This document shows positions 878 to 59,155 of a stretch of 64,000 bases of DNA, piece by piece. Source of the DNA: Parahoeflea halophila (GTDB lineage Bacteria; Pseudomonadota; Alphaproteobacteria; Rhizobiales; Rhizobiaceae); assembly GCF_900220985.1 (NCBI RefSeq), contig NZ_OCPC01000003.1, forward strand, positions 310,001 through 374,000. Reading direction: 5' to 3'. Both the position numbers and the translations under genes were made by a program. The notes beneath the pieces were generated by a model, which was not told the DNA's origin, ran no database searches, and worked only from the letters and a program-made list of their open reading frames with translations. The stretch's first letter is position 1, and every line of letters begins with the position of its first letter.

Positions 878-955
878 TCAGGCAGGACTGACGGCCGGCC
901 GGATCATATGCCGCGCAGCGCGTTTCTTCGTGCTGACGCGGGTCGGGACCTAGGC
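878..955 (-). pseudogene. Degenerate 3'-end copy of the methyltransferase gene at 3037
   Basis: Read on the minus strand this stretch encodes the last residues of a methyltransferase, ending in a TGA at 878-880. Its STKKRAARHMI matches STKKRGARHMI at the C-terminus of the gene at 3037-3711, and 18 of the last 23 residues agree by hand alignment. About three quarters of the bases match over some 84 positions. An in-frame TAG lies just upstream in the remnant and the rest of the gene is absent. It has the same orientation as the intact gene, with alkB and the HD gene between the two copies. Confidence 0.8.
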
Positions 956-1070
956 GACCCCTAAGCCGGCCCGGCGCAGCTTGCCAATCAGCTTGCTCCC
1001 GTCCACCCTGCCGCCTACCATCAGGCAGGAGATGCTGCGCCAACTGCGTGGCCACCCAGGGAGCCGTTCG

Positions 1071-2267
1071 ATGATCTTCATCAGCACCACAAAGACCGGT
1101 GAACAGATCAAATACCGCGACAACAAGCGGTGGCTCTGGGTTCTCTCGGTGCTGTCTCCGTCGCTGCCCGGTCTGGCCGCGGTGACCTATCTTCTGACCG
1201 GAGATGCCTGGTGGGTGCTTGCGCCGGTGGTGTTTTATTACGGCATCTACATTGTCGGCGATCACCTGGTCGGCACCGATCCGAACAACCCGCCCGAGGA
1301 GGTGGTCGAGGCGATGGCTTCGGATCAATACTACCGGGTGCTGCTGTTTCTATCGGTGCCGGTTTTCTGGTTTTCCTTCCTCGCCTGCGCAATCGCGGCA
1401 GGCCAACCGGGCACGCCGCTCTGGGCCTGGATCGGCCTGGTGGTTGCTGCAGGCGTGAGTTCGGGCACAGCCATCACCGTCGGCCACGAGCTGGGCCACA
1501 AGCCCAACCGGCTCGACCAGTGGGGCGCCAAATTCGCTAATGCGGTGTCGGGCTACGGCCATTTCTGCATCGAGCACAATCGCGGCCATCACGTCCATGT
1601 CGCCACGCCCGGGGACCCCGCCTCCGCCCGGCTCGGGGAAAGCCTGTGGCGCTTCGCATGCCGGGAAATTCCGGGAACCGCGCGGCGCGGCTGGCAGATG
1701 GAGCGGGCACGGCTTGCGCGCAAGGGGTTGCCGTTCTACCACTGGCGCAACGACATCCTGCTGGGCTATGCGATCACGCTGGTGGCGGACCTGCTGCTGG
1801 TCGCCGCTTTCGGCTGGACCATGCTGGCCTTCGTGCTGGTCCACAATCTGATCGCCTGGTTTCACCTCACGACTGCCAATTACATCGAGCATTACGGGCT
1901 CAAACGGAAGCTCAATGCCGATGGACGCTATGCCCCGTGCGAGCCACGGCATTCCAGGAACACAAACCACATCATTTCCAACCTGATGCTGTTTCACCTG
2001 CAGCGGCACTCCGATCATCACGCCAATCCGCTCAGGCCCTATCAGGCGTTGCGCTCTTTTGACGACCTGCCGACCCTGCCGTCGGGCTATCCCGGCACCT
2101 TCCTGCTGGCGTCATTTCCACCTCTGTGGTTCCGGGTGATGGATCCGAAAGTACTCGACTGGGCCGGGGGCGATCTCGGCAAGACCAATCTTGATCCGGG
2201 ACGGGCCAGGGATTACCAGACGCGCTGGCCTGCCCCGGTTTCACTTGACCGTGAGGCCGCACAGTGA
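1071..2267 (+). CDS. alkB: Alkane 1-monooxygenase (AlkB family, membrane di-iron)
   Basis: Integral membrane non-haem di-iron hydroxylase that oxidises the terminal methyl of medium-chain n-alkanes to 1-alkanols, using electrons from rubredoxin. All diagnostic histidine boxes are present: HELGH (about residue 139), EHNRGHH followed by HVATPGDPAS (about 168), NYIEHYGL (about 270) and LQRHSDHHA (about 310). Several hydrophobic segments lie in the first 130 residues and around 225-265. The start at 1071 is chosen because AGGGAG lies 8 bases upstream and the 398-residue length fits the family; an earlier in-frame ATG at 981 would add an unlikely leader. The next gene overlaps its stop codon. No rubredoxin or rubredoxin reductase is visible in the window, and no rubredoxin is fused to the C-terminus, so the electron donor must be encoded elsewhere. 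Confidence 0.93.
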   Translation: MIFISTTKTGEQIKYRDNKRWLWVLSVLSPSLPGLAAVTYLLTGDAWWVLAPVVFYYGIYIVGDHLVGTDPNNPPEEVVEAMASDQYYRVLLFLSVPVFWFSFLACAIAAGQPGTPLWAWIGLVVAAGVSSGTAITVGHELGHKPNRLDQWGAKFANAVSGYGHFCIEHNRGHHVHVATPGDPASARLGESLWRFACREIPGTARRGWQMERARLARKGLPFYHWRNDILLGYAITLVADLLLVAAFGWTMLAFVLVHNLIAWFHLTTANYIEHYGLKRKLNADGRYAPCEPRHSRNTNHIISNLMLFHLQRHSDHHANPLRPYQALRSFDDLPTLPSGYPGTFLLASFPPLWFRVMDPKVLDWAGGDLGKTNLDPGRARDYQTRWPAPVSLDREAAQ

Positions 2268-2848
2268 CGGCGCTGCCCGAGCCAGCCCGAATCGCGGCAA
2301 TCCTGAGTTTTCTCGACGAGGCCAACCGGCTCAAGGACACGCTGCGCAGCGGCCGCACACCGAAAGGACGGCAGGAGAGCACGGCCGAACACAGCTGGCG
2401 GCTCTGCCTGCTTGCGATCCTGCTTGCCGACACGCTCGAAGGCATCGACCTGTTGCGGCTGATCAAGCTCTGCATCGTGCATGATCTTGGCGAGGCCCTT
2501 TCCGGGGATGTTCCGGCAACCGACCAGCAGGCCGGCGATAACCGTGCCGCCCGTGAACGGGCGGACCTTGACACGCTGTGCGCGCCCCTGCCCGGTGATC
2601 TGAAAAGTGAGATGATCGCGCTCTGGGACGAATATGCGGAAGCGCTGACGCCGGAAGCCGTCATGGCAAAGGGTCTCGACAAGATCGAAACCATGCTGAC
2701 CCATTCCACCGGCAGCAATCCGGCCGGTTTCGATTACGGCTTCAATCTGGGCTACGGGGTGGAGGCGACCAGCCGGCACCCGCTGCTGGCCAGCATACGG
2801 GAACAGATCGACGCCAGAACCCGCAGGCTCGCGTCAAGCCAAGGCTGA
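2264..2848 (+). CDS. HD-domain phosphohydrolase (YfbR/HDDC2-like)
   Basis: A 194-residue HD-superfamily protein with metal-binding residues H43 (AEHSWRL) and H73-D74 (VHDLGE). This pattern is seen in 5'-deoxynucleotidase YfbR and the eukaryotic HDDC2 group, which hydrolyse deoxynucleoside 5'-monophosphates. The GTG start overlaps the alkB stop codon, so the two are translationally coupled. Why a nucleotide phosphatase would be coupled to an alkane hydroxylase is unclear. The substrate is inferred from family only. It is part of the block enclosed by the two copies of the methyltransferase 3' end. Confidence 0.8.
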   Translation: MTALPEPARIAAILSFLDEANRLKDTLRSGRTPKGRQESTAEHSWRLCLLAILLADTLEGIDLLRLIKLCIVHDLGEALSGDVPATDQQAGDNRAARERADLDTLCAPLPGDLKSEMIALWDEYAEALTPEAVMAKGLDKIETMLTHSTGSNPAGFDYGFNLGYGVEATSRHPLLASIREQIDARTRRLASSQG

Positions 2849-3036
2849 AATCAATCCCGAAGGCAATTTCCCAGTTAAACGCCTGGGGTTCAACCGGGCC
2901 GGGTTGCCCGCAGAACGGTGTCTCAGGCAACCTTTGCGAGCCGCGTCGGCTTCTGTCACGGTGCAACCGGGTTGCGTGATTGGTCGCTTTTGCCAGATCT
3001 TCTTGCCACACCTCCCCAGGGCCAAAACCCCGGCAT

Positions 3037-3711
3037 TCAGGCAGGCTTGACGGCCAGCCAGATCATGTGGCGGGCACCGCGCTTTTTGGTGCTGGCCCGG
3101 GTCGGCACTTCGGTAACCTCGAAACCCGCCTGTTTCAGCCGCCGGGTGAAGGCCGCGTCGGGCGCGGACGACCACACGGAAAACACTCCGCCCGGCGCCA
3201 GGGCCCGGTTAGCAGCGCCAAGCCCGGCGGCGGAATAGAGCGCGTCATTGCCCTGCCGGGTCAGACCGTCGGGGCCGTTGTCGACATCGAGGAGAATGGC
3301 ATCCCAGTCATCCCGGGCATTACGGATCAAGTCGCCAACGTCTCCCTGGTGCAGGCGGACCCGGGGGTCGCCGAGACAGCCGTCAAAGACTTCCGCCATC
3401 GGGTCTTTCGCCCAGGCGATGACCTGCGGCACCAGTTCGGCGACCGTGATACTGGCATCCGCCGGCAACGCCTTGAGAGCGGCACGCAGGGTGAACCCCA
3501 TGCCGAGCCCGCCGATCAGCATTCTGAGTGCCGCCCTCCCGGCAAGCTTTTCAGCCGCAAGCCTGGCCAGGGCCTCCTCCGAGCCACTGAGCCGGCTGTT
3601 CATCAACTCGTTGGAGCCGAGCATGATGGAGTATTCAGTGCCGCGGCGCATCAGCTTGAGCTCGATGCCGTCTTCGAGTTGAACGGCGTCGAGCCGTTGC
3701 CAGGGAATCAT
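3037..3711 (-). CDS. Spermidine synthase-like SAM-dependent methyltransferase
   Basis: A class I Rossmann-fold protein. LMIGGLGMGFTLRAAL carries the glycine-rich motif I (position differs slightly by start), AELVPQVIAWA is the acidic motif-II region, and LLDVDNGPDGL is the LDxDNGPxxL signature of a spermidine-synthase-like family common in alphaproteobacteria. Cytoplasmic; the acceptor is unknown and true polyamine synthase activity is not implied. The start at 3711 (MIPWQRLDAV) matches how relatives usually begin; in-frame ATGs up to 3783 exist and none has a clear ribosome-binding site. The last 28 codons are duplicated in degenerate form at 878-955, so this may be a chimera whose 3' end came with the alkB-HD block. 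Confidence 0.8.
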   Translation of the reverse strand: MIPWQRLDAVQLEDGIELKLMRRGTEYSIMLGSNELMNSRLSGSEEALARLAAEKLAGRAALRMLIGGLGMGFTLRAALKALPADASITVAELVPQVIAWAKDPMAEVFDGCLGDPRVRLHQGDVGDLIRNARDDWDAILLDVDNGPDGLTRQGNDALYSAAGLGAANRALAPGGVFSVWSSAPDAAFTRRLKQAGFEVTEVPTRASTKKRGARHMIWLAVKPA

Positions 3712-3875
3712 GGGGCCATCCATCGCCGAGGTGAAAATGCTGTCCATCCCTACACGCGGGCGCAGCATTTTCACAGCCATCATGGCTTCAGGCTTCGGAC
3801 CCTGTCCGACCCTGCCCCGAACTCTGGACCGGCTGCGGCAGGCATTGGGCCCGCGCCACAGCCTTGCCGCAGCCG

Positions 3876-9773: not shown

Positions 9774-9781
9774 CTACCTCG

Positions 9782-13957: not shown

Positions 13958-14917
13958 TCAGTGCGCGACAACAACCCGGTTGCGTCCCGTGTTTTTGGCC
14001 TCATAGAGCGCCTCGTCTGCTCGCGCGACAATCTTTCCGAATTCCGTATCTTCAGGTGAACGGGTGGCCACGCCGACCGAGATCGAGAAGCGCAACGCAC
14101 CGTCATTCGTCGGTATTTCGATGCGCCCGATTGATTTGCGCAGTTTCTCGCCAACGGCCGCAGCGGCCGTTTCATTCAACCCGGGAAGAAGGACAAGGAA
14201 TTCCTCGCCACCGATACGCGCAAACACGCCTTTCTCCGGCCCGACGGCTTCGGCACCGCACCTGGCCAACGCGATGAGAGCCTGATCACCCAGCCCGTGG
14301 CCGTAGCTGTCATTGATTTTCTTGAAGTGATCCACATCCAGTAGTAGCACAGAGAGGTCCCGGTCAGACACGCTGGCATTCTCCATGCAATCGGCTGCGA
14401 TAGCGAAAACATGGCGCCTATTGAACGCCCCGGTCAATTCGTCGGTGGTCGAGAGCCGCTCAAGCGACTGCTCCTTGAGCTTCAGGTCAGAAACATCTTG
14501 AAACAGAACCTGAATGACCGGCGTTCCGGCCCAGGGCAGGCGTGCGCTTATCAGTTTGATGTTAATGGGCGGCCCGTCGCCCGCGCTCAGGAGGGTCTCC
14601 TTGTTGATAACCTCAGCACCCTCTGCAAAGGAACGTTGCAACTGGTTCATAACAGCATCGAATTCAGTAGGATCTACAAAATCCAAGACATGCTGACCGA
14701 CCAGCTCCTCTTTCCTGACGCCGAGCATTCGGCAGGCTTCTTGATTGCCAAACAGGATCCCTTGTTCAGTATGAATCAACAACCCCATTGGCATGATGTC
14801 GAGCATCATTCCCAGGCGTTGCTGAGTGTCAATCAAAGCCTGTTGGGTTGCCTCGGCTGCACCTATGGCATCATCATCAAGGTAAAACTCGCCGTTTTGG
14901 GCTTGTGCCGATCCCAT
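13958..14917 (-). CDS. PAS-GGDEF diguanylate cyclase
   Basis: A 319-residue cytoplasmic protein: a PAS domain at about 35-145 (MLDIMPMGLLIHTEQGILFGNQEACRMLG), a short coiled linker, and a GGDEF domain from about 155 (TDELTGAFNRRHVF, LLDVDHFKKINDSYGHGLGDQAL) with an intact active-site GGEEF (RIGGEEFLVLLPG). It makes c-di-GMP from two GTP, with the PAS domain sensing an unknown signal. The upstream I-site (RxxD) is not evident. AGGAGGTGCACT gives a very strong ribosome-binding site. Monocistronic. Confidence 0.92.
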   Translation of the reverse strand: MGSAQAQNGEFYLDDDAIGAAEATQQALIDTQQRLGMMLDIMPMGLLIHTEQGILFGNQEACRMLGVRKEELVGQHVLDFVDPTEFDAVMNQLQRSFAEGAEVINKETLLSAGDGPPINIKLISARLPWAGTPVIQVLFQDVSDLKLKEQSLERLSTTDELTGAFNRRHVFAIAADCMENASVSDRDLSVLLLDVDHFKKINDSYGHGLGDQALIALARCGAEAVGPEKGVFARIGGEEFLVLLPGLNETAAAAVGEKLRKSIGRIEIPTNDGALRFSISVGVATRSPEDTEFGKIVARADEALYEAKNTGRNRVVVAH

Positions 14918-20043: not shown

Positions 20044-20817
20044 TCAGGCGGCGCAGACGCGGTTGCGGCCCTGGCGCTTGGCTTCGTAGAGCTGCTTGTC
20101 CGCCCGGCGATATAGCTCTTCGCCGGATTCGGTTCGATCCCAGATCGCCAGCCCGGCGCTGACCGTTACCTTGAGAGTGACATTGCCATTGACAATGCGC
20201 AACTCGGATACGGCCTGGCGAATGCGGTCAGAGAGATTGTAAAGCTGCCGCTCAGTGATGTTGGGTGAGAGAATGGCAAACTCCTCGCCACCCAGGCGGG
20301 CGAGTACATCATGATAGCGGGTAAAGACCTGCAGGCATTCCGCCACTTCGCGCAGAACCTTGTCACCCACGTCATGGCCATGGGTGTCGTTGACCTTCTT
20401 GAAGTGATCCAGATCGAGAATAACCATGCCGATCGGCTTGTCGATATGTCCGAACGCCTCGAGATACTCCGAAAGGGCGTCGTCGAAATAACGGCGGTTG
20501 TACATGCCGGTCAGGCTGTCGGTAACTGCCGCGTGTTCCAGATTGAGCGAGCGGACAGAGAGAGATTCGGTCATCTGCTGCAATTTGCCACGTTCCCGCA
20601 GGCTGGACGACATGGTCGGGTAAACCAGAAGCAAGCCGCAAACCACCGACAGGCCCGCCAGCACGGCCCCCATGAGGGCGAAGTCTGCTGAAGTCTCGAT
20701 GCCACCGACGACATGGCCACCGGTCGCGGCGGAGAAGGCCGCCAACGAGAAGACCCCGCCGGCAACTACAAGAATCATCAGCAGAAAAAAGAACAGTTCA
20801 GCCTTGTGAAAACGCAT
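20044..20817 (-). CDS. Membrane-anchored GGDEF diguanylate cyclase
   Basis: A 257-residue protein with two transmembrane helices (about 8-30 and 46-68) around a short periplasmic loop, a brief coiled linker, and a complete GGDEF domain (TDSLTGMYNRRYFDDAL; ILDLDHFKKVNDTHGHDVGDKVL; active site RLGGEEFAILSP). Makes c-di-GMP at the inner membrane. The small periplasmic loop leaves little room for a ligand domain. It ends QGRNRVCAA. Monocistronic, facing miaA on the same strand with about 100 bases between. Confidence 0.92.
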   Translation of the reverse strand: MRFHKAELFFFLLMILVVAGGVFSLAAFSAATGGHVVGGIETSADFALMGAVLAGLSVVCGLLLVYPTMSSSLRERGKLQQMTESLSVRSLNLEHAAVTDSLTGMYNRRYFDDALSEYLEAFGHIDKPIGMVILDLDHFKKVNDTHGHDVGDKVLREVAECLQVFTRYHDVLARLGGEEFAILSPNITERQLYNLSDRIRQAVSELRIVNGNVTLKVTVSAGLAIWDRTESGEELYRRADKQLYEAKRQGRNRVCAA

Positions 20818-32578: not shown

Positions 32579-32732
32579 GGACAGTCCCCTTGTTGCTGGA
32601 AATAGGCCAACTCGAGCCGCATTCCGTTGGCAATTCAACGAGCGCATGTTTGGCATTGTAGCCGATGCTGTCAATAGCCATCCCTTTTCGATACCCCCTT
32701 TTCATCGGCTGACCGGCACCCTATATTAGGCA

Positions 32733-33090
32733 TGCTGCGAAAGCAGCTATGACAATAAACGAGCGCTGCAATAAACCATTCGGACCCGGGGGCGGTACCC
32801 GGCGCCTCCACCATGATCCGGCCTGTTGCCGGCAAGCGGCCCTAGCGGCCGGATGATGATGGGGGCGAAACAGGATCGACGAGGGTGTAAAGAGCGACTT
32901 TTTGTTCGGCATTGTACCACCGTTATCGGGCTAAACTTGTAGTTGCAAACGACAACTATGCGGAAGCTCGTCTCGCTGCCTAATGGCGGTGTGACACTTC
33001 AAATTAAGTCCTAGAGGGTCGCACTTCTAGGCGGGGTTCGGAGGTACCTGGCAACAGAAACCTCCACTTTCCCGACCTGCATGAAAGCCG
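32733..33090 (+). ncRNA. ssrA: tmRNA, circularly permuted two-piece form
   Basis: The gene is permuted: the acceptor piece comes first, the coding piece second. The acceptor piece ends at 32803-32813 with CGCCTCC, discriminator A and encoded CCA; its T-arm is CCGGG GGCGGTA CCCGG. The coding piece starts at 32861 with GGGGGCG, which pairs with CGCCTCC (one G-U) to rebuild the tRNA-like acceptor stem; 32814-32860 is the spacer removed during processing. The tag frame at 32945-32983 reads ANDNYAEARLAA then TAA. A TATATT at 32722-32727 is a likely -10. Ends are approximate (5' about 32733, 3' about 33085-33095). It rescues stalled ribosomes with SmpB (not encoded here) and marks products for ClpXP. 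Confidence 0.95.
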
Positions 33091-43763: not shown

Positions 43764-44627
43764 ATGCAACGTGATCTCGAAATCGACCTCCTGCGCTCCT
43801 TCGTGGCGATCGCCGCGCACCGCAGTTTCACCCGCGCGGCGGAAGCCATCGGACGCACGCAGTCCGCCGTCAGCCTGCAACTCAAGCGGCTGGAACAGAT
43901 TACCGGTGAACGGCTGTTCGAGCGCAGCCGCAATTCTGTCGAGATCACGCCGACCGGCGAAGCGCTGCTGGTGCATGCCAACCGGATTCTGATGGCCAAC
44001 GAGGCGGCGCTGGCGCATATCAGGCGGCCGGAAGCGGAAGGCCTGATCCGCTTCGGCGCACCGGATGACTATGCCAGCTACCTGCTGGCGCCGATCCTGG
44101 CGGGGTTTCGGGCCGAGTATCCGCTGGTGGAGTTCGAGCTCACCTGCGAAAGCTCGATCGACCTTGTGCCGATGCTCGAGCATGGCGAAATCGACATCAT
44201 GCTCGGCACCCACCAGTCAGACCAGGTCAATGGTCGGATTGCGCGCTATGAATCCCTGCACTGGGTGGCCGGCCCCGATTATGTCGACGATCCGGCCAAG
44301 GGGCTCTCGCTGGCGCTGTTTCCTCAAGGCTGCGCGGTGCGCCATGCCGGACTCGTGGCACTCGAACAGATCGAACGGCCCTGGCGCATCGTCTGCTCGA
44401 CCCGCAGCGTCGACCTGATCGAGAAAACCGTGCTCAACGGCGCCGGCGTCTCGGTGATGGAAGCCTCCATCATCCCCGGGACCCTGCGCGTACTCGATGG
44501 CCAGCCCGGCTTCCCGCCACTGCCCGAAATCGCCATGAGCGTGCACTACAACAAGGCAGCCTGCCCGCCACATGTGGGGATATTCGCGGATTACCTGGTG
44601 GGGGAACTGGGGAAGCGGCGCGTGTAG
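43764..44627 (+). CDS. LysR-type transcriptional regulator
   Basis: A 287-residue regulator: N-terminal winged helix (LEIDLLRSFVAIAAHRSFTRAAEAIGRTQSAVSLQLKRLEQITGERLFERS) and a LysR substrate domain from about 90 (GLIRFGAPDDYASYLLAPILAGFRAEYPLVEFEL). Resembles the group controlling small-molecule transport, but ligand and target are unknown. It ends about 170 bases before the uvrD 3'-end remnant, which is on the other strand, so the ancestral neighbour was probably uvrD. Confidence 0.9.
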   Translation: MQRDLEIDLLRSFVAIAAHRSFTRAAEAIGRTQSAVSLQLKRLEQITGERLFERSRNSVEITPTGEALLVHANRILMANEAALAHIRRPEAEGLIRFGAPDDYASYLLAPILAGFRAEYPLVEFELTCESSIDLVPMLEHGEIDIMLGTHQSDQVNGRIARYESLHWVAGPDYVDDPAKGLSLALFPQGCAVRHAGLVALEQIERPWRIVCSTRSVDLIEKTVLNGAGVSVMEASIIPGTLRVLDGQPGFPPLPEIAMSVHYNKAACPPHVGIFADYLVGELGKRRV

Positions 44628-44726: not shown

Positions 44727-44794
44727 CCAGTTTTAGTCCTTGTGCTGAACGTGTCTTACCCCCCGGCAGAAACCGGGTCAGGTTTGGCCTGAGA

Positions 44795-44935
44795 AACAGA
44801 CGGTCAGCTTTTTGGCGTCGAGTGCAACGATGTTGCAGTAGTCGAACTTGTAATGGTGGCCGATGGAACGTCCGGGATCTGTGCCGGTGGATCTGGCAAC
44901 CAGTTGGCCCGAGTCGGTGGCGCCACGCGGTTGAA
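44795..44935 (-). pseudogene. Degenerate 3'-end copy of uvrD
   Basis: On the minus strand it reads ...RGAT-DSGQLVARSTGTDPGRSIG...NIVALDAKKLTV, aligning with RGSTIEGELVARSTGTESAFSIG...NIAGIDGNKLTI in the C-terminal tudor-like region of UvrD (intact copy at 47929-48073 of this window). LVARSTGT is identical. Several small deletions and loss of the final ~16 codons mark it as dead. It has the orientation of uvrD and is separated from it by about 3 kb of accessory genes. Confidence 0.8.
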
Positions 44936-44969
44936 CCCGAGGAAGCCGGTTCTTCGCATCAAGCAACAA

Positions 44970-45002
44970 TTCACCCGGCCGGCAACGGGCCGCCCGGGTG
45001 AA
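44970..45002 (-). terminator. Hairpin terminator after the secreted-protein gene
   Basis: Arms TTCACCCGG/CCGGGTGAA pair perfectly around a GC-rich loop, followed on the minus strand by a T-rich TTGTTGCTT. It lies about 30 bases past the stop at 45032 and just before the uvrD remnant, so it marks the end of the inserted block. Confidence 0.6.
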
Positions 45003-45031
45003 CTGTCTTTGTGGAGCAGGCACTCTGACTT

Positions 45032-45478
45032 CTAACGCCAGATTGAGCCCTTGAACTGGCCGGTGGCGTCTCCCGGGGTTATGCCGGACAGGTCACAATG
45101 GTTGGGATTTCCCGGCACATCGGCCTCGATCAGCCGGGCGCTTTTGACCGGCGCGTTGATCACGCAATAGGCGTCGAAGCGGACCGGCAACCCCTGCAGC
45201 GTGTTTTCGCGATTGCCACCCGGACGGCAGTTGACGCTGGCGCCAAGCATGCGCCCGGTGATGTCAACCTCTTCGGTTCCGAAACTGCAGACTTCGCCGG
45301 TTTTCGTTCCGGGCGTTCCGCCGGGGCCACCGATGGTGACGCCGCGGATGACGACGCCGGTCGTCACCGGTGTGACGCCGGACATCAGACCGGCTTCTTC
45401 CGCGAGGGCATGGGAGGTGATCGTCGCGGCCAGGGCGAAGATCATCGAGGGCAAGGGATGCTTGTATGGCAAGTTCAT
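45032..45478 (-). CDS. Secreted small cysteine-containing protein
   Basis: A 148-residue protein with signal peptide (MNLPYKHPLPSMIFALAATITSHALA, cleavage about residue 26). The mature part has four cysteines (TGEVCSFG, VNCRPG, AYCVIN, HCDLSG), probably two disulfides, and a Gly-rich GVTIGGPGGTPGTKTG. Ribosome-binding site AAGGAGA. No family recognised. It is last of the cassette after the tail-collar and RhiA genes, and may be a secreted or surface partner of them. Confidence 0.65.
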   Translation of the reverse strand: MNLPYKHPLPSMIFALAATITSHALAEEAGLMSGVTPVTTGVVIRGVTIGGPGGTPGTKTGEVCSFGTEEVDITGRMLGASVNCRPGGNRENTLQGLPVRFDAYCVINAPVKSARLIEADVPGNPNHCDLSGITPGDATGQFKGSIWR

Positions 45479-45565
45479 CACGGGTCTCCTTTCAAGGTTT
45501 CGAGGCATTCTCCCACGCAGCTGCATGGCGTCGTGAAGCGGGGCTTTGGTTATCGGCTCCGGCGA

Positions 45566-46147
45566 TCAGCGGAACTTGATGATGTAATTGACGGCAATGT
45601 TCTTGGGGCGCGTTTCGGACGAGAACCGGGCCGGTGATGCGAGCCCTTCGGTCTGTTTCTTCGTCACATTTGTTCCCGCGGCCGGACCTGATTGCGAGAC
45701 GGCCGCCGGGCTGGTGATGTCATATTGGTGGGTGTGATCCTGCAAGGCATCGCACTGAAGCGAGCCGACAACATTGGCGGTGTTGTTGCCGGTCGGGTCC
45801 CACCGGGCCTTGGCATCAGGATCCATGCCGGCGCCGGCATCGAGCCCTCGCAGGAAAACCCCGCGATAGTCCGGAATGCGGAAGTCGGCGCCGGAGTTTT
45901 TCTCGCCGTAAAGAAAGCCGATCACCGCATGCAATTCGGGGTAGCTGGCAACGCTGAGATAGCGTCCGTCGCACAGCATCCAGCCCTGGCTTTCGATGTG
46001 ATTGAGCGGACTGGCGGCCTTGCCGCCCTCGACAGGCGTGATGGCTGCGCAGGCCGCATTTGACCAGATGGCATTCGGGGCGCCGGAGACAGGATCGACC
46101 TGCCCGGCGAAGGGGCTCACGGACCCGACGGGCATGGCGAAAGACAT
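45566..46147 (-). CDS. Tail-collar domain protein (phage tail fibre/MdpB-like)
   Basis: A 193-residue protein. MPVGSVSPFAGQV...GWMLCDGRYLSVASYPELHAVIGFLYG...DFRIPDYRGVFLRGLD is the Phage Tail Collar domain, used in tail fibres and in microcystin-dependent MdpB-like bacterial proteins. The C-terminus (RPKNIAVNYIIKFR) is the standard ending of the domain. Start 46147 has AAGGAAACC upstream. No other phage structural genes are nearby, so it is a domesticated or free-standing member. Grouped with RhiA. Confidence 0.85.
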   Translation of the reverse strand: MSFAMPVGSVSPFAGQVDPVSGAPNAIWSNAACAAITPVEGGKAASPLNHIESQGWMLCDGRYLSVASYPELHAVIGFLYGEKNSGADFRIPDYRGVFLRGLDAGAGMDPDAKARWDPTGNNTANVVGSLQCDALQDHTHQYDITSPAAVSQSGPAAGTNVTKKQTEGLASPARFSSETRPKNIAVNYIIKFR

Positions 46148-46310
46148 GACGGTTTCCTTACATGATCGGCACGATGGAGACCGGGAGCGGAGTGGCGCGC
46201 CCTGGCGGGCGGTGCTGTGGCGACGCGGTCTGATGGCAGTCGCCTGGGCGCAACTTTCTCCGCTCCCGGCCGGCTCTGCGAAGTCGCAAGCAGAGCCGGA
46301 GAACGGTTGT

Positions 46311-47006
46311 TCAGGCCGGGTTGATATCCCAGGTGTTGTCGCCACCGAGCACACAGTCGAGCGCGAACACGGCCGACTTGAACTTCGCCTCGGCAGTCTG
46401 CGTGATTGTGTTGATGTTCAACACCGTGCCAATCCTCGTGTTGGTTCCTGCTGCCACCCAGTAGCTCGGCGTCGGCGTGAACACGTGCTGGAGATTGGTG
46501 CCGGCCTGCACGGCATAGGAACCGGTGCCGGACATGCCGATGCCGACAGAGAACTTGTTGTTGGGGACATCTGCCGCATCATTGATGATCAGCGATCCGT
46601 CCGGCGGTCCCTTTACCGGATCGGAAAGCCCGGGACCAGGGGTGAGCGAGAACTCGGTCGTGTTCTTTCCGCTCGGGCTGCAGTCCTTGGGGCCGCCGGC
46701 ATCGAATGTCACGCCGGGGATCAGTTGGCCGGTATCGCTCCAGACGAAGTTATACTCGATCTCCCAGGTGAAGCGGATGTGGTCGCCAACACGGATCATG
46801 TAGGGTGAGCAGAACCAGGCTAGAGAGAACACGTCGGCCACCTGGGCGGGCATCTTCTGGTAGACGTAGAATGTCCAGGGCTGTGCAGACTGGTTGATGA
46901 GCTTGAGCGAATACTGGGTACCCTGCCCCATGGCCTCCGCGTGGGACTGCGACATGAGCGATTCGAACGGCATCGTCTGGTCGGCGTAACTGATATGAAT
47001 GGACAT
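46311..47006 (-). CDS. rhiA: RhiA family protein
   Basis: A 231-residue protein with the RhiA hallmarks: QYSLKLINQSAQPWTFYVYQKMP, VFSLAWFCSPYMIRVGDHIRFTWEIEYNFVWSDTGQLIPGVTF, NNKFSVGIGMSGTGSYAVQAGTNLQHVFTPTPSYWVAAG, and a final GGDNTWDI. RhiA was described as an abundant, quorum-sensing-controlled, rhizosphere-expressed protein of Rhizobium leguminosarum; function remains unknown. No rhiB, rhiC, rhiR or luxI-type gene is here. Downstream on the same strand is the tail-collar gene, 163 bases away. Confidence 0.8.
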   Translation of the reverse strand: MSIHISYADQTMPFESLMSQSHAEAMGQGTQYSLKLINQSAQPWTFYVYQKMPAQVADVFSLAWFCSPYMIRVGDHIRFTWEIEYNFVWSDTGQLIPGVTFDAGGPKDCSPSGKNTTEFSLTPGPGLSDPVKGPPDGSLIINDAADVPNNKFSVGIGMSGTGSYAVQAGTNLQHVFTPTPSYWVAAGTNTRIGTVLNINTITQTAEAKFKSAVFALDCVLGGDNTWDINPA

Positions 47007-47309
47007 CTGCTTATCCTCTGCTGTGAAGCCCTTTCAGGCCAATGGTGGAAGGACCCACACCGGATTGGTGGCGTGGCCGGACCCTTAGGAGACACCGCAC
47101 CCGGAACGAATTCCGATGATCTCTGACATCTTCGGTCACCTTGCCCGATTGCCACGTGTGCTCGGCGCAACTGTTTGAAACTGCAGAGCTACCGCAATTC
47201 CAGAGGGTGCATTCACAAACTTTAAACCATAACGTGTATATTTGGTATTCAATGCAATCAACCGGCAGTTAAATGCCAGCGATCGCTTCACCGCTGGTCA
47301 AATCCCCCG
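47007..47309. other. Intergenic region before rhiA with regulator-site candidate
   Basis: About 303 bases upstream of rhiA. The middle (47200-47260) is AT-rich and includes ATTTGGTATT at 47240-47249, the inverted counterpart of AATACCAAAT at 47756-47765 on the far side of the XRE gene. Otherwise nothing recognised. Confidence 0.45.
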
Positions 47310-47669
47310 TCAAAGCGGGGAATCCCGCTCGGGAATTTCAGCAAGTATCGCCAGGACTGGCTCCAGGATTCGTGGCGGTCGTTGCCTGAGCATTTCGAGC
47401 AGTTCCAGCTCCTCATCGGTCAGATGCTCCCTGCGTTGCCAGTCCGGCGCGTTTCGCCCCAGCGCGAGCCAGTCCAGAGAAACATCCAGGGACCGTGCCA
47501 GCAGGCAGGCATTGTCGAGCGTCATGGGGTGGCCGTGGATCCATTTGGACATGGCCGCAGGAGACACTCCGATTTCAACGGCAAGCGCCATGGCCTTGTT
47601 GTGACCACGCTGTTTCATCGCCCGGACGATGCGCTTGCCGCGTTGCGTGTCGATGGGTTGGTTTGGCAT
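47310..47669 (-). CDS. XRE-family helix-turn-helix regulator
   Basis: A 119-residue DNA-binding protein with a lambda-repressor-like HTH at about 12-65 (RIVRAMKQRGHNKAMALAVEIGVSPAAMSKWIHGHPMTLDNACLLARSLDVSLDWLALG). The C-terminal ~50 residues (REHLTDEELELLEMLRQRPPR) are a helical, prophage-regulator-like tail. Start 47669 has AAGGAT upstream. It is on the same strand as rhiA; matching ATTTGGTATT elements lie on both sides, making it the likely local regulator of the cassette. Confidence 0.85.
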   Translation of the reverse strand: MPNQPIDTQRGKRIVRAMKQRGHNKAMALAVEIGVSPAAMSKWIHGHPMTLDNACLLARSLDVSLDWLALGRNAPDWQRREHLTDEELELLEMLRQRPPRILEPVLAILAEIPERDSPL

Positions 47670-47755
47670 GCGACGATCCTTCACTTCGAGACGGCCGCCT
47701 GCCATTAAATGTATCTTAGGTTGTATTTGTTAATAATAAAGCAACTATAAGTTTC

Positions 47756-47765
47756 AATACCAAAT
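47756..47765. promoter_or_regulatory. Half of a paired operator candidate around the XRE gene
   Basis: AATACCAAAT here is the reverse complement of ATTTGGTATT at 47240-47249. One copy lies in the promoter region of the XRE gene and the other in that of rhiA, both in unusually AT-rich DNA. Confidence 0.45.
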
Positions 47766-47873
47766 AAATGCATCCGCAATGTCTGGCGAAACCTCCGGTC
47801 TGTCGGATTGAGCGTGAGCAGACTTCAATCGCTTATGTTGTCGTCCGTGAACATCAGCTGTGTGCAGGTGCTC

Positions 47874-50384
47874 TCATACCCGCTCGACAAAGCCTTCGAG
47901 CACTCGCTTCTGGCCGGCCTTGTCGAAATCGATGGTCAGCTTGTTGCCATCGATCCCGGCGATGTTGCCATTGCCGAATTTGAGGTGGAAGACGCGGTCG
48001 CCGATGGAAAAGGCCGATTCGGTGCCCGTTGAACGGGCCACCAGTTCGCCTTCGATGGTGGAACCGCGGGGACCGGACTCTCCGTAAGCGATGCGTTCGA
48101 CTGCGTGGCCGGAGCGAGTGCCCCAGTTGTCTCGGGCGGCGTCGGTCTTGTTGGCCTGGGCACGCTTCCAGCCGGGCGTGTTGTAATTGCCGGAAAACGG
48201 CTCGGCCCTGTCGAAACGCGAGGCACCGTAGGGGCCACCCGAATGTCCGGAACCGCCAAAGCGTCCACCACGGCCATAGCCGCCATACCCGGTGTCCATC
48301 TCGGCCACTTCGACATGGGCCTCGGGCAGTTCGTCAAGGAATCGCGAAGGCAGCGTCGATTGCCAGAGCCCGTGGATACGGCGGTTGGAGACGAACCAGA
48401 CGTGGCAGAAAAGTTTGGCGCGGGTCAGCCCGACATAGGCGAGGCGCCGCTCCTCCTCAAGGCCCGAGCGGCCGCCTTCATCAAGTGCGCGCTGATGCGG
48501 GAAAAGGCCTTCTTCCCAGCCGGGCAAGAACACGGTCTCGAATTCCAGCCCCTTGGCCGAGTGCAGCGTCATGATCGAGACGGCGTCAAGATCGGGGTTG
48601 TTGTCGGTGTCCATGACCAGCGCCACGTGCTCGAGGAAGGCACGCATGGATTCGAAACCGGAGATGGTCTCGACCAGTTCCTTCAGGTTTTCGAGCCGCG
48701 TCGGCGCGTCGGCGGAGCGGTCGTTCTGCCACATCTCGGTGTAGCCGGATTCCTCGAGGATTGTCTCGGCCAGCTCGTGGCCGGGGGTTGCTTCCATCAT
48801 CCCCTGCCAGCGGGTGAACATCTCGACCACATCAGTCAACGACTTGCGCGGCTTGGGCTTGAGCTCATCGGTGAGGATGAGTTCGCGGGCGGCCGCCAGC
48901 ATCGGGATACCGCGGGCGCGGGCAACATCGTGGATCTGGCGCACCGCAGCCTCGCCGAGGCCACGCTTGGGAACATTGACAATACGCTCAAAGGCGAGAT
49001 CGTCGGCTGGCTGGGAGACAACCCGGAAAAACGCCATCGCGTCGCGGATTTCCTGGCGTTCATAGAAGCGCGGGCCGCCGATGACACGATAATTCAGCCC
49101 CAGCGTGACGAAGCGCTCTTCGAACTCGCGCATCTGGAACGAGGCGCGGACCAGGATCGCCATGTCGTTGAGCGCCCGGCCCTTCCGCTGTGCCTGCTCG
49201 ATCTCCTCGCCAATGGCGCGGGCCTCCTCCTCAGAGTCCCAGGCGGCATGAACATGCACGCGCTCGTGATCGGGGTCGGACTGTTCGGTGAACAGGGTTT
49301 TGCCGAGCCGGCCCTCATTGTGCGAGATCAGGTGCCCGGCTGCGCCGAGAATATGCTCGGTCGAGCGGTAGTTGCGCTCGAGCCGGATGACCTTCGCACC
49401 GGGGAAATCCCTCTCGAAGCGCAGGATATTTTCGACCTCGGCGCCGCGCCAGCCATAGATCGACTGGTCGTCATCGCCGACACAGCAGATGTTGGGCCGC
49501 TCGCCCTCGGGGCGCTGGGCCAACAGTCTCAACCACATATACTGCGCGGTGTTGGTGTCCTGGTACTCGTCGACCAGGATGAAGCGGAATTTGCGCTGGT
49601 ACTCCTTGAGTACATCGGGATGGGCACGGAACATGCGGATCGGCAAACAGAGAAGATCGCCGAAATCGACAGCGTTCAAGGTTTGCAGCCGTTCCTGGTA
49701 GGCCTTGTAGAGCGCCCTGCCTTTCCCGTTGGCAAACCCGCGGCTGTCGCCTTCAGGGATGTCTTCGGGGCCATAGCCCTTGTTCTTCCAGCCATCGATC
49801 ATATTGGCGAATTGCCGCGCCGGCCAGCGCTTGTCGTCAATCCCCTCGGCCTGGATCAGCTGCTTGCAGAGCCGGATCACGTCATCGGTGTCGAGAATGG
49901 TGAAATCGGAGCGCAGATTTGCCAGTTCGGCGTGACGGCGCAGCAGCTTGACACCGATCGAGTGGAAGGTGCCGAGCCAGGGCATGCCCTCGACCGCGCC
50001 GCCGACCAGAACGCCGATGCGCTCCTTCATCTCCCGCGCCGCCTTGTTGGTGAAGGTGACGGAGAGGATCTGCGACGGGTAAGCCAGTCCGAGATTGAGG
50101 ATGTGGGCGATGCGGGTGGTCAGGACCCGGGTCTTGCCGGTCCCCGCCCCGGCCAGAACCAGCACCGGCCCCTCAATGGATTCGACGGCATCGGCCTGCT
50201 CGGGGTTGAGGCCGGAAAGGTAGTTCGGCGCGGGCCGCGCGGCGTTGCGCGCCTGCTGGTTCGCCGCGAGCGCACGGGCCGCGATCGAGCCGCCCGCACC
50301 GGACGGTGCCGGAGCGGCTGGCGGCGTACGCGGCGCCGGATCGTCGTCGCCGAAAAACGGAATGTCATCATCTGCTGAGCTCAT
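47874..50384 (-). CDS. uvrD: UvrD/PcrA-type DNA helicase
   Basis: An 836-residue SF1A helicase of nucleotide-excision and mismatch repair. Walker A LAGAGTGKTRVL (about 77), motif II ILVDEYQDTNTAQ, motif III GDDDQSIYGWRGA, motif IV region LERNYRSTEHIL, motif V MTLHSAKGLEFETVFLPG and motif VI YVGLTRAK are complete. The N-terminal ~50 residues are a Pro/Ala-rich extension; after about 660 a Gly-rich linker leads to the tudor-like domain (ELVARSTGTESAFSIGDRVFHLKFGNGNI). The last part is duplicated in decayed form at 44795-44935, so the 3' end may have been exchanged when the RhiA cassette arrived. Confidence 0.95.
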   Translation of the reverse strand: MSSADDDIPFFGDDDPAPRTPPAAPAPSGAGGSIAARALAANQQARNAARPAPNYLSGLNPEQADAVESIEGPVLVLAGAGTGKTRVLTTRIAHILNLGLAYPSQILSVTFTNKAAREMKERIGVLVGGAVEGMPWLGTFHSIGVKLLRRHAELANLRSDFTILDTDDVIRLCKQLIQAEGIDDKRWPARQFANMIDGWKNKGYGPEDIPEGDSRGFANGKGRALYKAYQERLQTLNAVDFGDLLCLPIRMFRAHPDVLKEYQRKFRFILVDEYQDTNTAQYMWLRLLAQRPEGERPNICCVGDDDQSIYGWRGAEVENILRFERDFPGAKVIRLERNYRSTEHILGAAGHLISHNEGRLGKTLFTEQSDPDHERVHVHAAWDSEEEARAIGEEIEQAQRKGRALNDMAILVRASFQMREFEERFVTLGLNYRVIGGPRFYERQEIRDAMAFFRVVSQPADDLAFERIVNVPKRGLGEAAVRQIHDVARARGIPMLAAARELILTDELKPKPRKSLTDVVEMFTRWQGMMEATPGHELAETILEESGYTEMWQNDRSADAPTRLENLKELVETISGFESMRAFLEHVALVMDTDNNPDLDAVSIMTLHSAKGLEFETVFLPGWEEGLFPHQRALDEGGRSGLEEERRLAYVGLTRAKLFCHVWFVSNRRIHGLWQSTLPSRFLDELPEAHVEVAEMDTGYGGYGRGGRFGGSGHSGGPYGASRFDRAEPFSGNYNTPGWKRAQANKTDAARDNWGTRSGHAVERIAYGESGPRGSTIEGELVARSTGTESAFSIGDRVFHLKFGNGNIAGIDGNKLTIDFDKAGQKRVLEGFVERV

Positions 50385-56665: not shown

Positions 56666-56728
56666 TACCTCCGACCTGTCCCATTCCGGGACACAAGGGT
56701 CTGGCACGGATCCTGCTCTGTCTTGTGC

Positions 56729-58129
56729 ATGAGCAAGAACCGTCACGTTCTGAGCCGCCGCGCGCTTCTGGGCAGCCTTGCCGGAATTGGTGCGGCAGGT
56801 CTTGTCACACCGCCGAGCGCCACTCGCGCCGCCGCCGGCAATCTGTTTACGCAGATCGATCTGCGCGGCGGACACGATGCCGATCTCGCCGGGCTGCTGC
56901 CGGACGCGGTGGATGACCAGAGCCGGCTGTTTCAGCGCGCCATAGACGAGGCAGCCGCTCTGGACCGGGTTCTCAGTCTTCCGCCCGGGCGTTTCGTGGT
57001 CTCCAACATTGACCTTCCCGACGGCGCCCGGATCGCAGGCGTGCCCGGCGCGACGCGGCTGATCTACGGCGGGCGCGGCCATTTCATGCTGGCGGAAGGT
57101 GCACGCCGCATCGAGCTGTCCGGGTTGGTGCTTGACGGTGTCAACCAGCGGCTTGGTGATCACGTCTCGTCGCTGGTGCATCTGCGCGGTGTCAGCGAGG
57201 CCATCGTCGACGATCTGGTCATCGCCGGTGCGGACGGGCATGGACTGACGCTGGAAGCCTGCGGCGGACGGATCAACCATTGCGAGATTTCCGGCGCACG
57301 GCTGGCCGGCATCTACGCTGTTGAAAGCCACGGACTTTCGATCACCCGCAATGTGGTGCGCGACTGTGCCAATGGCGGTATCCTGGTGCATCGCTGGTCG
57401 GTGGGCGAAGACGCGACGCTGATCGACGGCAATCGGGTGACGCGGATTGCGGCGCGAGCCGGCGGCACCGGACAGAACGGCAACGGCATCAACATCTTCC
57501 GCGCGGCCAATGTGATGGTGACCAACAACCATGTCTCCGACTGTGCGTTCTCTGCAATCCGCGCCAACCAGGCCAGCAACATCCAGATCGTCTCCAACCA
57601 AGCGATCCGCTCGGGCGAGACTGCGATCTATGCCGAGTTTTCTTTCCAGGGCGCGGTGATCGCCTCGAACCTGGTCGATGGCGGCACCGTGGGGATCTCG
57701 GTGGCCAATTTCAACGAGGGCGGGCGGCTGGCTTCCATTACCGGCAACATCCTCCGCAACCTTTCATCCAAGGGCCCTTACCCAGCTCAATATGCCGGTT
57801 TCGGAATCGGCATGGCAATCGAGGCGGACGCCGCGGTTTCGGGCAATGTCATCGAGGGCGCGCCGAAATGGGGCGTGCTGATGGGCTGGGGGCCATTCCT
57901 CAGGGCGGTCAATTTCTCCGGCAACACGATCCGCGATTGCGGTGCGGGCATCGCCGTTTCGGTGGTCGAAGGCGCCGGCACCGCACTGATCTCCGGCAAC
58001 TTGTTCGACGCCACGCCGGACGGTGCCATTATCGGTTGCCGCTGGAATGAAGTGGTGACAAAGGACCTGGCCCGGGTTGGCGCGGGCCGGTTCAAGCATC
58101 TGACGCTGGAGCGCAATGCGGTGGCATAA
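56729..58129 (+). CDS. Tat-exported parallel beta-helix protein (TIGR03808 type)
   Basis: A 466-residue protein. The RR signal is HVLSRRALLGSLAGIGAAGL with cleavage near TRAAAG (about 36). The rest is a right-handed beta-helix with repeated G-I-x-V/N-x-N coils (for example NGGILVHRWS, GNGINIFRAANVMVTNNHVSDCAFSAIRANQASNIQIVSNQ), typical of uncharacterised alphaproteobacterial Tat repeat proteins. No pectate-lyase catalytic triad can be identified. The last codons (GAGRFKHLTLERNAVA) are repeated in degenerate form at 59077-59155, beyond a PRC-barrel gene. The ATG at 56729 is preferred to an upstream TTG. Confidence 0.85.
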   Translation: MSKNRHVLSRRALLGSLAGIGAAGLVTPPSATRAAAGNLFTQIDLRGGHDADLAGLLPDAVDDQSRLFQRAIDEAAALDRVLSLPPGRFVVSNIDLPDGARIAGVPGATRLIYGGRGHFMLAEGARRIELSGLVLDGVNQRLGDHVSSLVHLRGVSEAIVDDLVIAGADGHGLTLEACGGRINHCEISGARLAGIYAVESHGLSITRNVVRDCANGGILVHRWSVGEDATLIDGNRVTRIAARAGGTGQNGNGINIFRAANVMVTNNHVSDCAFSAIRANQASNIQIVSNQAIRSGETAIYAEFSFQGAVIASNLVDGGTVGISVANFNEGGRLASITGNILRNLSSKGPYPAQYAGFGIGMAIEADAAVSGNVIEGAPKWGVLMGWGPFLRAVNFSGNTIRDCGAGIAVSVVEGAGTALISGNLFDATPDGAIIGCRWNEVVTKDLARVGAGRFKHLTLERNAVA

Positions 58130-58499
58130 GGACTGCTCGCGGAGATCTGCCCGAAGCGGATGAAGCGCCCGAAGGCAATCGTGTAAATGAAGTCGGGCAA
58201 AAAGAGATACAGGTTTATTGGCCGGTCGCCGCTCTGGACGATATCCAAGCTTCAGTGCTTGGTGATCCGTTTCCGTCGGACCACCGGCACGGGCGCTGGC
58301 TCCAACTGACCATGTTCCTGCCAGACAACACTGACGAAACAAAAGTGTTTTGAATACAGTAACTTACAGCCAACGGGGCCAGGTTTCCCAAAAAAATGCG
58401 GAACAATCTCCGATGTAGTGGAGTTGGGATAGCGAATGCGGTTGTCGAACGAACTGGTCACGCCGCATCGCAAAATTGAAATCCAACTTGGAGGAACCC
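58130..58499. other. 370-base region after the beta-helix gene
   Basis: No gene recognised. It begins the block between the beta-helix gene and its 3'-end remnant. The part before the PRC-barrel gene is AT-rich (58330-58430) and probably holds that gene's promoter. Confidence 0.45.
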
Positions 58500-58919
58500 A
58501 TGAAACGCCTTCTTCTTGCCACTGCTGGCGCACTTATGATCTCGGCACCCGTCGTGGCCCAGATGACGGACTATTCCGACCTCATCCGGACTCGCGACAT
58601 CACCGGCGGCACCATCTACACCATGAACGCGTCCTATGATGAAGGTTCCTGGGGCACGGACCCTTACTACACCAGTGCCGACACTGAGTGGAACGATATC
58701 GGGGAAATTGAAGACGTGATCCTCAACCGCGAGGGCAAGATGGTCGGCATCGTCGCCGAGATCGGTGGTTTTCTCGACATTGGCGATAAGCATGTAATGC
58801 TGCCAGTGGAAGACGTGAAGCTTGTCGCAGTTGACGACAAAAGCTATTCGTACGTCACGCGTCTTTCCGAGGAACAGTTGGAAGAGCTGGAGAGCGTTGA
58901 CGAAGCATGGTGGAACTAA
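58500..58919 (+). CDS. Secreted PRC-barrel domain protein
   Basis: A 139-residue protein with signal peptide (MKRLLLATAGALMISAPVVAQ) and a PRC-barrel domain (SADTEWNDIGEIEDVILNREGKMVGIVAEIGGFLDIGDKHVMLPVEDVKLV, about 60-115). PRC-barrels mediate protein-RNA or protein-protein contacts; exported forms are frequent in Rhizobiales, of unknown function. Ribosome-binding site GGAGGAA. It has its own terminator and is the only gene in the block bounded by the two copies of the beta-helix gene's 3' end. Confidence 0.85.
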   Translation: MKRLLLATAGALMISAPVVAQMTDYSDLIRTRDITGGTIYTMNASYDEGSWGTDPYYTSADTEWNDIGEIEDVILNREGKMVGIVAEIGGFLDIGDKHVMLPVEDVKLVAVDDKSYSYVTRLSEEQLEELESVDEAWWN

Positions 58920-58954
58920 CACCCTGAAGCGTCTTGAACAAGGTGAAGCTCTTG

Positions 58955-58986
58955 AACCCCGCCGGTGGACACCGGCGGGGTTTATC
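58955..58986 (+). terminator. Intrinsic terminator after the PRC-barrel gene
   Basis: Arms AACCCCGCCGGTG / CACCGGCGGGGTT pair perfectly over 13 bases around a two-base centre, then TTATCTTG. Confidence 0.88.
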
Positions 58987-59076
58987 TTGTCTGAAGCCAG
59001 GCTGGCGCTCCGTTTGGGTAGAAAAATTTCATCCTTGAATCTGTCGGGCGGAATGCAAGAGGCAGAGCCAACCTAG

Positions 59077-59155
59077 AATGACGGCGGTCATCGGGCTCCT
59101 CATGCGGCGCGGGCCGGTTCAGGCATCTGACGCTGGCGCGCAACGCGGTGGCTTG
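59077..59155 (+). pseudogene. Degenerate 3'-end copy of the beta-helix gene at 56729
   Basis: Bases 59106-59153 match 58079-58126 with four differences in 48 by hand count. Translated it gives GAGRFRHLTLARNAVAW against GAGRFKHLTLERNAVA-stop. Weaker similarity extends upstream to about 59077. The stop codon is lost and no other part of the gene is present. Same strand as the intact gene. Confidence 0.85.

What the first reader, a model, noticed from the sequence alone, without database searches (positions are those of the whole stretch)
878..59155. Recurrent one-sided insertion: intact gene, cargo, leftover gene end
Three independent loci in 64 kb have the order intact gene 3' end, accessory cargo, degraded second 3' end in the same orientation, with no integrase, transposase or tRNA. 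This is what homology-facilitated illegitimate recombination would produce: incoming DNA anchors by homology in a shared gene, and its other end joins by short or no homology, leaving the host's own gene end outside. If the pattern is common genome-wide it would be a cryptic route of gene gain near gene 3' ends, possibly favoured by convergent neighbours.
Basis: inference. Interest (0 to 1): 0.8.

Follow-up and report, generated by a model that had tools for sequence, protein, structure and literature searches.

The report
Leftover gene ends beside inserted DNA
In this bacterium some accessory genes sit between an intact gene and a decayed second copy of that gene's last 50-150 letters, and comparison with relatives suggests that the end of a DNA-repair gene (uvrD) has taken up unrelated genes in this way several times, with no insertion enzyme found so far.

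Summary
The three structures are real: 3'-terminal fragments 877-980 (of gene 3037-3783), 59106-59152 (of 56723-58129) and 44793-44930 (of uvrD, 47874-50384), same strand, 1-3 kb downstream. They are not a genome-wide habit: in 824 of 4186 kb (665 genes) they are the only noncoding 3' fragments, with no 5' counterpart upstream. The loci differ. At TIGR03808 (B) and uvrD (C) relatives show the empty order, so the segment is an insertion. At locus A the 'cargo' is the usual neighbourhood; the fragment with its far flank is the odd part. New: the uvrD 3' end is a repeat target in Hyphomicrobiales. Unrelated cargo followed by a uvrD 3' fragment also lies in G012, G014, G015, L244, G166 and G388. 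Fragment starts differ (-54 to -283), junctions share no motif, and the five mobile-element hits followed up hold the whole or most of uvrD. In G388 the fragment keeps the genus-type end while the intact gene has a new one. Best reading: capture at the gene end on one side, illegitimate joining on the other, akin to homology-facilitated illegitimate recombination but keeping the target end. Mechanism unproven.

The parts
47874..50384 (-). Locus C intact gene: UvrD/PcrA-type helicase, 836 aa
   Evidence: Pfam UvrD-helicase 1e-86, UvrD_C 7e-62; ortholog 97% in G002
44931..47873 (.). Locus C inserted segment (2943 nt); in G002, G010 and G013 uvrD is followed directly by the gene that here lies beyond the fragment
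   Evidence: GC 59.7% against 63.2% for the last 1.2 kb of the gene
47310..47705 (-). Cargo gene: CI-repressor-like HTH protein
   Evidence: Pfam Phage_CI_repr 3e-7
46311..47006 (-). Cargo gene: no Pfam match
45566..46147 (-). Cargo gene: phage tail collar domain protein
   Evidence: Pfam Collar 3e-14 on the longer frame 45566-46354; best other match in 18 genus genomes E 3e-7
45032..45445 (-). Cargo gene: small protein, no Pfam match (scanned as 45032-45526)
44793..44930 (-). uvrD 3' fragment (gene positions -197 to -51), decayed
   Evidence: 65% identity; nhmmer E 5e-16
43764..44627 (+). Old flank of uvrD (LysR-like gene; name recalled from sequence)
   Evidence: cluster c21, directly after uvrD in G002, G010, G013
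56723..58129 (+). Locus B intact gene: TIGR03808 family TAT-translocated repetitive protein
   Evidence: NCBIfam TIGR03808 9e-126
58130..59105 (.). Locus B inserted segment (976 nt, GC 54% against 64%)
58500..58919 (+). Cargo gene: PRC-barrel domain protein
   Evidence: Pfam PRC 8e-7 on the longer frame 58476-58919; other matches in 18 genus genomes 44% identity or less
59106..59152 (+). TIGR03808 3' fragment (gene positions -50 to -4)
   Evidence: 93.6% identity; nhmmer E 3e-9
59321..59680 (+). Far flank of locus B; in G005 the homologous gene follows TIGR03808 directly
3037..3783 (-). Locus A intact gene: spermine-synthase-like methyltransferase
   Evidence: Pfam Spermine_synth 1.5e-5
1071..2848 (+). 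Genes between at locus A (fatty acid desaturase, HD protein): usual neighbours, not foreign cargo
   Evidence: Pfam FA_desaturase, HD_3; clusters c8 and c7 each in 12 of 17 genomes
877..980 (-). Locus A 3' fragment, to the stop codon; one internal TAG; nearest to the G005 end (78%; its own 73%)
5..847 (+). LysR gene beyond the locus A fragment; with c31 and c10 it is placed differently from relatives

Best explanation
At uvrD (C) and TIGR03808 (B) foreign DNA was captured at the very end of the gene. One end of the incoming DNA joined by short homology in or near the last codons, so the gene keeps or gains a working end and a stop. The other end joined 51-283 nt upstream in the resident gene (possibly on a sister copy), so the resident 3' end stays outside as a decaying fragment next to its old flank. 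Shown: insertion against the empty order for B and C; 3' position; matches ending within 20 nt of the stop in nine of ten events (window C ends at -51); variable fragment start; no shared junction motif; a new terminus on the intact gene in G388. Inferred: that the incoming DNA carried a uvrD-like end; that joining was RecA- or microhomology-mediated; that the upstream join is illegitimate; that repeats longer than about 300 nt are missing because they loop out. Locus A is a separate rearrangement.
For: Empty order for B and C. Different cargo at uvrD elsewhere: G012 (GmrSD_N, FRG), G014 (SLFN_AlbA_2), G015 (8 kb; DUF6636/PG_binding_1, ankyrin repeats), L244 (one 258-aa frame), G166 (chemotaxis receptor, GC 41%), G388 (FecCD, periplasmic binding protein, ABC ATPase). 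Ends near the stop. G388: fragment ends as genus-type DKA*, intact gene ends ERAGN*, near-identical 91-nt block in both. Lineage-specific states mostly absent from fragments. No common motif, p 0.33-0.90. Counted fragments 3' only.
Against: In G000 the intact genes show no clear mosaic: G002 is the closest relative over most windows, though in the last 100 nt of uvrD G003, G010, G013 and G016 (-100 to -50) and G010 (-50 to 0) are slightly closer, and excess private states in the last 60 nt also occur in genomes without events. Young pairs lack donor-type synonymous differences. HFIR products normally carry deletions. No donor with gene-cargo order lacking the fragment was found; only three cargo proteins were searched, two in 18 genus genomes and one in 397 order genomes. 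The likeness of the G388 end to G324/G415 is by eye. Ku was not found in G015, G166 and G347, so Ku-type end joining is not general.
Confidence: 0.48

Rival explanations
1. Target duplication: foreign DNA without any gene homology is trapped in a staggered break or by replication template switching, which leaves 47-287 nt of the resident gene end in two copies; only insertions at the gene end survive.
For: Young pairs (B, L244, G388) differ by 3 sites each without third-position excess. The 91-nt block in G388 carries the same states in both copies, apart from two sites and the site where the ends diverge. Codon-position totals 62:58:104 fit decay of a neutral copy plus synonymous change in the intact one.
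Against: The match ends at or near the stop codon instead of running a random distance into the intergenic region. The intact G388 gene has a new terminus. In G015 the two fragments show none of the 17 minority states of the intact ends (11 in the weak B case, 6 in C).
Confidence: 0.27
2. Site-specific integration at gene 3' ends by a recombinase acting in trans or since lost; the element supplies a replacement gene end, as phage 21/e14 do in icd (recalled).
For: Same topology: intact gene with new end, cargo, displaced genus-type end (G388); repeated use of one gene end.
Against: Fragment starts differ at the same gene (-54 to -283), so there is no constant core; no shared motif at junctions; no recombinase family in the cargo proteins scanned (some short frames of the G015 insert were not scanned); the five phage, plasmid and IMG/VR hits followed up hold the whole or most of uvrD.
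Confidence: 0.13
3. Local tandem duplication of gene end plus neighbours, followed by loss of the rest.
For: Locus A: the genes between are usual neighbours and the surrounding order is rearranged.
Against: B and C cargo has no second copy in the window; the PRC and collar proteins have no close homolog in 18 genus genomes; cargo GC is 41-46% in G012, G014, L244, G166.
Confidence: 0.12

Closest known systems
Homology-facilitated illegitimate recombination (HFIR)
   Same: One side joined by homology, the other illegitimately; foreign DNA gained without recombinase (abstract and introduction of PMC3240628 read; passages of PMC2884548)
   Different: HFIR products generally lose about as much target DNA as they gain; here 47-287 nt of target are present twice, and a homologous donor stretch is not visible in the young cases
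T6SS effector-immunity displacement, and Rhs/CDI orphan tips
   Same: New module inserted at a gene's variable end, old 3' end shifted downstream (passages of PMC5361080; Rhs displacement seen only as cited there)
   Different: Here the anchor is a housekeeping helicase gene or a TAT-exported protein gene, the cargo is unrelated to it, and the leftover is a dead stub
Phage 21/e14 in icd and other 3'-end integrations (recalled; PMC11148124 seen as a listing only)
   Same: Replacement gene end brought by the insert, native end left outside
   Different: No recombinase found, no fixed core, small inserts (0.8-8 kb)
Linear DNA circularised by ligation and integrated by single crossover (PMC3240628)
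   Same: Would give gene, cargo, partial gene copy
   Different: Not shown here; its introduction says such events are inhibited 20-fold by UvrD in E. coli, a coincidence worth testing

Membership tests
HFIR | One junction by homologous recombination with a donor gene segment | tested here: inconclusive
   G388 new terminus and G015 fragments suggest a different allele; no clear mosaic in G000 intact genes; young duplicates nearly identical
HFIR | Other junction illegitimate, usually with 3-10 bp microhomology | not testable with these tools
   Fragment starts vary and share no motif, as expected of illegitimate joins, but microhomology cannot be judged without the donor sequence
HFIR | Deletion of target DNA at the illegitimate side | tested here: not met
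   In the events counted the target end is retained and partly duplicated; events with deletion leave no fragment and were not searched
HFIR | RecA dependence | not testable with these tools
   needs experiment
Integrase-borne island at gene 3' end | Recombinase gene in the element | tested here: not met
   No recombinase family in the proteins scanned from window B and C, G012, G014, L244, G015 (4 frames), G166 (1) and G388 (3); short frames in the low-GC part of the G015 insert not scanned
Integrase-borne island at gene 3' end | Constant core sequence at both ends | tested here: not met
   Fragment starts vary; shared k-mers at chance level
Tandem duplication | Cargo or flank present twice | tested here: not met
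   Self-comparison of the window shows no second copy of the B and C cargo

The most novel reading that the evidence does not exclude
The 3' end of uvrD is a recombinase-free landing site in Hyphomicrobiales: unrelated small cargos, two of them matching candidate anti-phage defence models, are repeatedly taken up there by capture at the last codons, sometimes with a substitute C-terminus, and the resident end is left behind as a datable scar. Because UvrD restrains single-crossover integration in E. coli (introduction of PMC3240628), tail replacement in uvrD might transiently lower that barrier and favour the very events that cause it.
Probability: 0.2. Interest if true: 0.75.

Novelty: new variant of a known kind. 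Interest (0 to 1): 0.47.

Why it matters
Leftover gene ends could serve as a sequence-only marker for gene gain that involved no recombinase, and their decay roughly dates the event. A gene whose end is hit repeatedly in separate genera would let the contribution of illegitimate capture to accessory gene content be measured, instead of being assumed small from its laboratory frequency.

Tried and rejected
A second, older fragment at 59683-59740 (a nested insertion) was suggested by an alignment to G002; shuffles gave p 0.33 against the G002 end and 0.16 to 0.95 against six others, so it was rejected. A first tblastn of all frames against the window gave mostly noise. The mosaic test of intact gene ends was not diagnostic. 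The relative-distance test has few sites per fragment; most single comparisons are not significant. Codon-position totals 62:58:104 do not separate two alleles from one decaying copy; locus A (4:7:15) is in between; G347 (1:1:11) looks like two alleles, but its second copy sits at a contig start, so it is counted as probable only and could be an assembly matter. G071 and G349 (second copy on another contig), G280 (contig break), G380 and G393 (one gene in two pieces, judged from coordinates) were not counted as events. TIGR03808 in G015 is weak (nhmmer E 0.02) but is one of the seven fragments in the site count. Ku was not found in 3 of 8 genomes. The genome-wide check covers 824 of 4186 kb.

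Dropped rows and limits of the controls: in the 80 named uvrD loci I counted only L244; rows at 57-62% identity in L247, L252 and L256, among them 5'-type upstream rows (L247, L256) and one 3'-type downstream row (L247), were judged background. In one search two 3'-type upstream rows, two 5'-type upstream rows and five 5'-type downstream rows, all in L260 and L288, were overlapping multi-hit repeat or paralog matches and were not counted. In one search the gene-head profiles of A and B gave nothing below E 0.01 outside the genes, but the fetched regions lie mostly downstream, so this is no upstream control; the C head profile held one sequence. The order-wide search used the tail only. One search stopped with an error after printing the block comparison; the tree was made. 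On re-checking I withdrew a statement that the right junctions lack microhomology, which cannot be judged without the donor; this required no change of odds.
Full report
WHAT WAS CHECKED. The finding gives only an overall range, so same-strand repeats less than 7 kb apart were listed. The genes are a spermine-synthase-like methyltransferase (A), a TIGR03808 protein (B) and the UvrD/PcrA-type helicase (C).

HOW COMMON. The window is G000:C6:310001-374000 of a 4.19-Mb genome. I scanned 824 kb of it, 665 genes of at least 300 nt by a simple caller of my own. Restricted to noncoding targets within 10 kb (blastn), six rows passed E<0.01: three 3'-type, all downstream, all the window loci; one 5'-type and two internal, also downstream. 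The 5'-type row and one internal row belong to neighbouring paralogs. No 5' fragment lay upstream of its gene. With gene-flank pairs shuffled (611 pairs) there were no 3'-type downstream same-strand hits at E<1e-5, and one upstream. The pattern is 3' only but rare, and in this sample confined to the window; since the window was chosen because a reader noticed it, the clustering itself is not tested.

EMPTY SITES. From relatives of the same genus (17 held) I fetched regions downstream of the three genes, 16 per gene (one of the C regions is from another genus), and clustered their genes. C: in G002, G010 and G013 uvrD is followed directly by the LysR-like gene that in the window lies beyond the fragment; the 2.9 kb between is unique among the regions compared. 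B: G005 has the gene at 59321-59680 directly after TIGR03808, and G002 has the oxidoreductase gene directly after it; the PRC-barrel segment is unique. The PRC and collar proteins have no close homolog in 18 genus genomes. A: the desaturase and HD genes lie downstream of gene A in most relatives (each cluster in 12 of 17 genomes), so they are not cargo. Beyond the fragment lie LysR, c31 and c10; in other species c31 precedes gene A (4 genomes in all hold c31) and c10 follows it. The fragment is nearest to the G005 end (78.1%, own 73.3%, not significant). A is a different event.

THE uvrD END IS A REPEAT TARGET. With a 17-sequence tail profile, uvrD 3' fragments were found in G012, G014 and G015 besides G000: 4 of 16 genus genomes examined, some with short downstream sequence. 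The inserts of G012, G014, G015 and G000 do not match each other's regions. The far side of the fragment is a gene that elsewhere follows uvrD: c25 in G012 as in G004, c54 in G014 as in G006, the LysR-like gene in G000 as in G002; in G015 it is c6, the next shared gene. Among 80 named uvrD loci there is one more: L244, a Phyllobacteriaceae MAG, 61 nt, 95%, ending at the stop, with a 797-nt insert holding one 258-aa frame. In 397 genomes of the order (387 with a uvrD tail) nine had extra tail matches including G000. Of the other eight, G166 (287 nt, 77.7%, 2.1 kb) and G388 (91 nt, 96.7%, 5.0 kb) are linked fragments, G347 is probable across a contig break, and five are not events. This search is insensitive: it missed G014 and G015. 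In 130 fetched loci with 1523 called genes, 3' fragments that I counted were 4 among 96 uvrD loci and 1 (32 nt) among the rest (Fisher p 7e-5; dropped rows are told under Tried and rejected). The loci were chosen around A, B or uvrD, so the rate for other genes rests on their neighbours. In the genus of G388 only G388 among 13 genomes examined has a fragment.

CARGO. GC is 43%, 44%, 46% and 41% in G012, G014, L244 and G166 against 53-66% for the gene; B is 54% against 64%; the window C insert (60 against 63) and G388 (67 against 68) are near host value; G015 is 56% with stretches of 31-40%. Domains: GmrSD_N and FRG (G012), SLFN_AlbA_2 with HATPase_c_4 (G014), CI-repressor HTH and tail collar (window); DUF6636 with PG_binding_1 and ankyrin repeats (G015), MCP signalling domain (G166), Peripla_BP_2, FecCD and ABC ATPase (G388). 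Against PADLOC-DB the G012 proteins match NsnA (1e-31) and PDC-S15 (3e-53) and the G014 protein part of a pAgo model (2e-42); L244 matches nothing. No recombinase family appeared; short frames in the G015 insert were not scanned.

JUNCTIONS. The match between the copies ends within 20 nt of the stop codon in nine of ten events: A, L244, G166 and G347 (0), B and C-G015 (-4), G014 (-8), G012 (-13), G388 (-20 to -16); window C ends at -51. Because gene sequence was the query, matches beyond the stop were judged by eye (G347); none was seen. Starts vary: -51, -54, -61, -86, -103, -107, -147, -198, -283. Shared 7- to 9-mers at left or right ends of nine events equal shuffled sequence (p 0.33-0.90). 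A 40-residue uvrD tail matched 3 phage and 14 plasmid records, and the tail alignment 1 IMG/VR contig; five of these 18 were followed up and all hold the whole or most of the gene, so they give no sign of an attP-like tail.

WHICH COPY IS NATIVE. At 78 sites where the intact end differs from the majority of relatives, the fragments have the intact copy's state at 14 and the majority state at 48 (seven fragments summed by hand, including the weak B case in G015). Intact end and fragment thus separated before most of the intact end's own changes, either because one is from another lineage or because the event is old. G388 is clearest; twelve genus relatives were compared. The fragment continues past the shared block into the genus-type end and its stop; the intact gene ends differently, by eye somewhat like G324 and G415, which are not its sister group in the uvrD tree. 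The shared block is the same allele in both copies apart from two sites plus the site where the ends diverge. In G347 the copies differ at codon positions 1:1:11, as two alleles would, but linkage is unproven. In the other young pairs (B, L244, G388) the few differences are not concentrated at third positions.

INTERPRETATION. The structure gene end, cargo, leftover end is seen for B and for uvrD in seven genomes (G000, G012, G014, G015, L244, G166, G388); an empty order was compared for all of these except L244 and G166, and only loosely for G015. The end at the stop codon argues that the incoming DNA had a gene-like end, as in HFIR; the identity of young duplicates argues for duplication of the resident gene. 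A join by short homology near the last codons, with the other end joined upstream, reconciles both. A ceiling near 300 nt may reflect loss of longer repeats by recombination; this is inference. An integrase is disfavoured but not excluded.

LITERATURE. HFIR and its deletions: introduction of PMC3240628 read. Displacement of T6SS effectors with a shifted 3' end, proposed as HFIR-like: passages of PMC5361080. Illegitimate recombination as a likely main source of small variable segments: passages of PMC2884548. Searches for uvrD with insertion hotspot (1 paper, listing), downstream of uvrD (1 paper, listing) and HFIR with gene remnants (2 papers, listing) showed no title or abstract start on this pattern at uvrD; only this open library was searched.

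Noticed in passing
32718-33074: tmRNA gene of the permuted type (flagged tmRNA* by ARAGORN) with tag ANDNYAEARLAA.
   Followed up: no
14277-14341 and 20354-20418: Short strong match between two paralogous genes 6 kb apart (proteins about 36% identical); the motif looks like a GGDEF domain (recalled).
   Followed up: no
34597-34746: Imperfect 75-nt tandem repeat (two copies, 71%) inside a 1277-aa frame.
   Followed up: no
G000:C6:286213-287037 (outside the window): The last 40-53 nt of this called gene recur at six dispersed noncoding places among the rows shown, all on the opposite strand: a dispersed repeat overlapping a gene end.
   Followed up: no
G000:C2:896987-897075 (L214): Noncoding 78% copy of an internal part of gene 900033-900512, 3 kb downstream, same strand.
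   Followed up: no
L199 7220-8347 and 8442-8473: A 32-nt copy of a gene's 3' end 95 nt after its stop in G005.
   Followed up: no
L361, L362 (G324, G415): Two species that are not sisters in the uvrD tree share an unusual uvrD C-terminus and, by eye, similar DNA after the stop, with no fragment found: possibly the same kind of event with deletion.
   Followed up: partly
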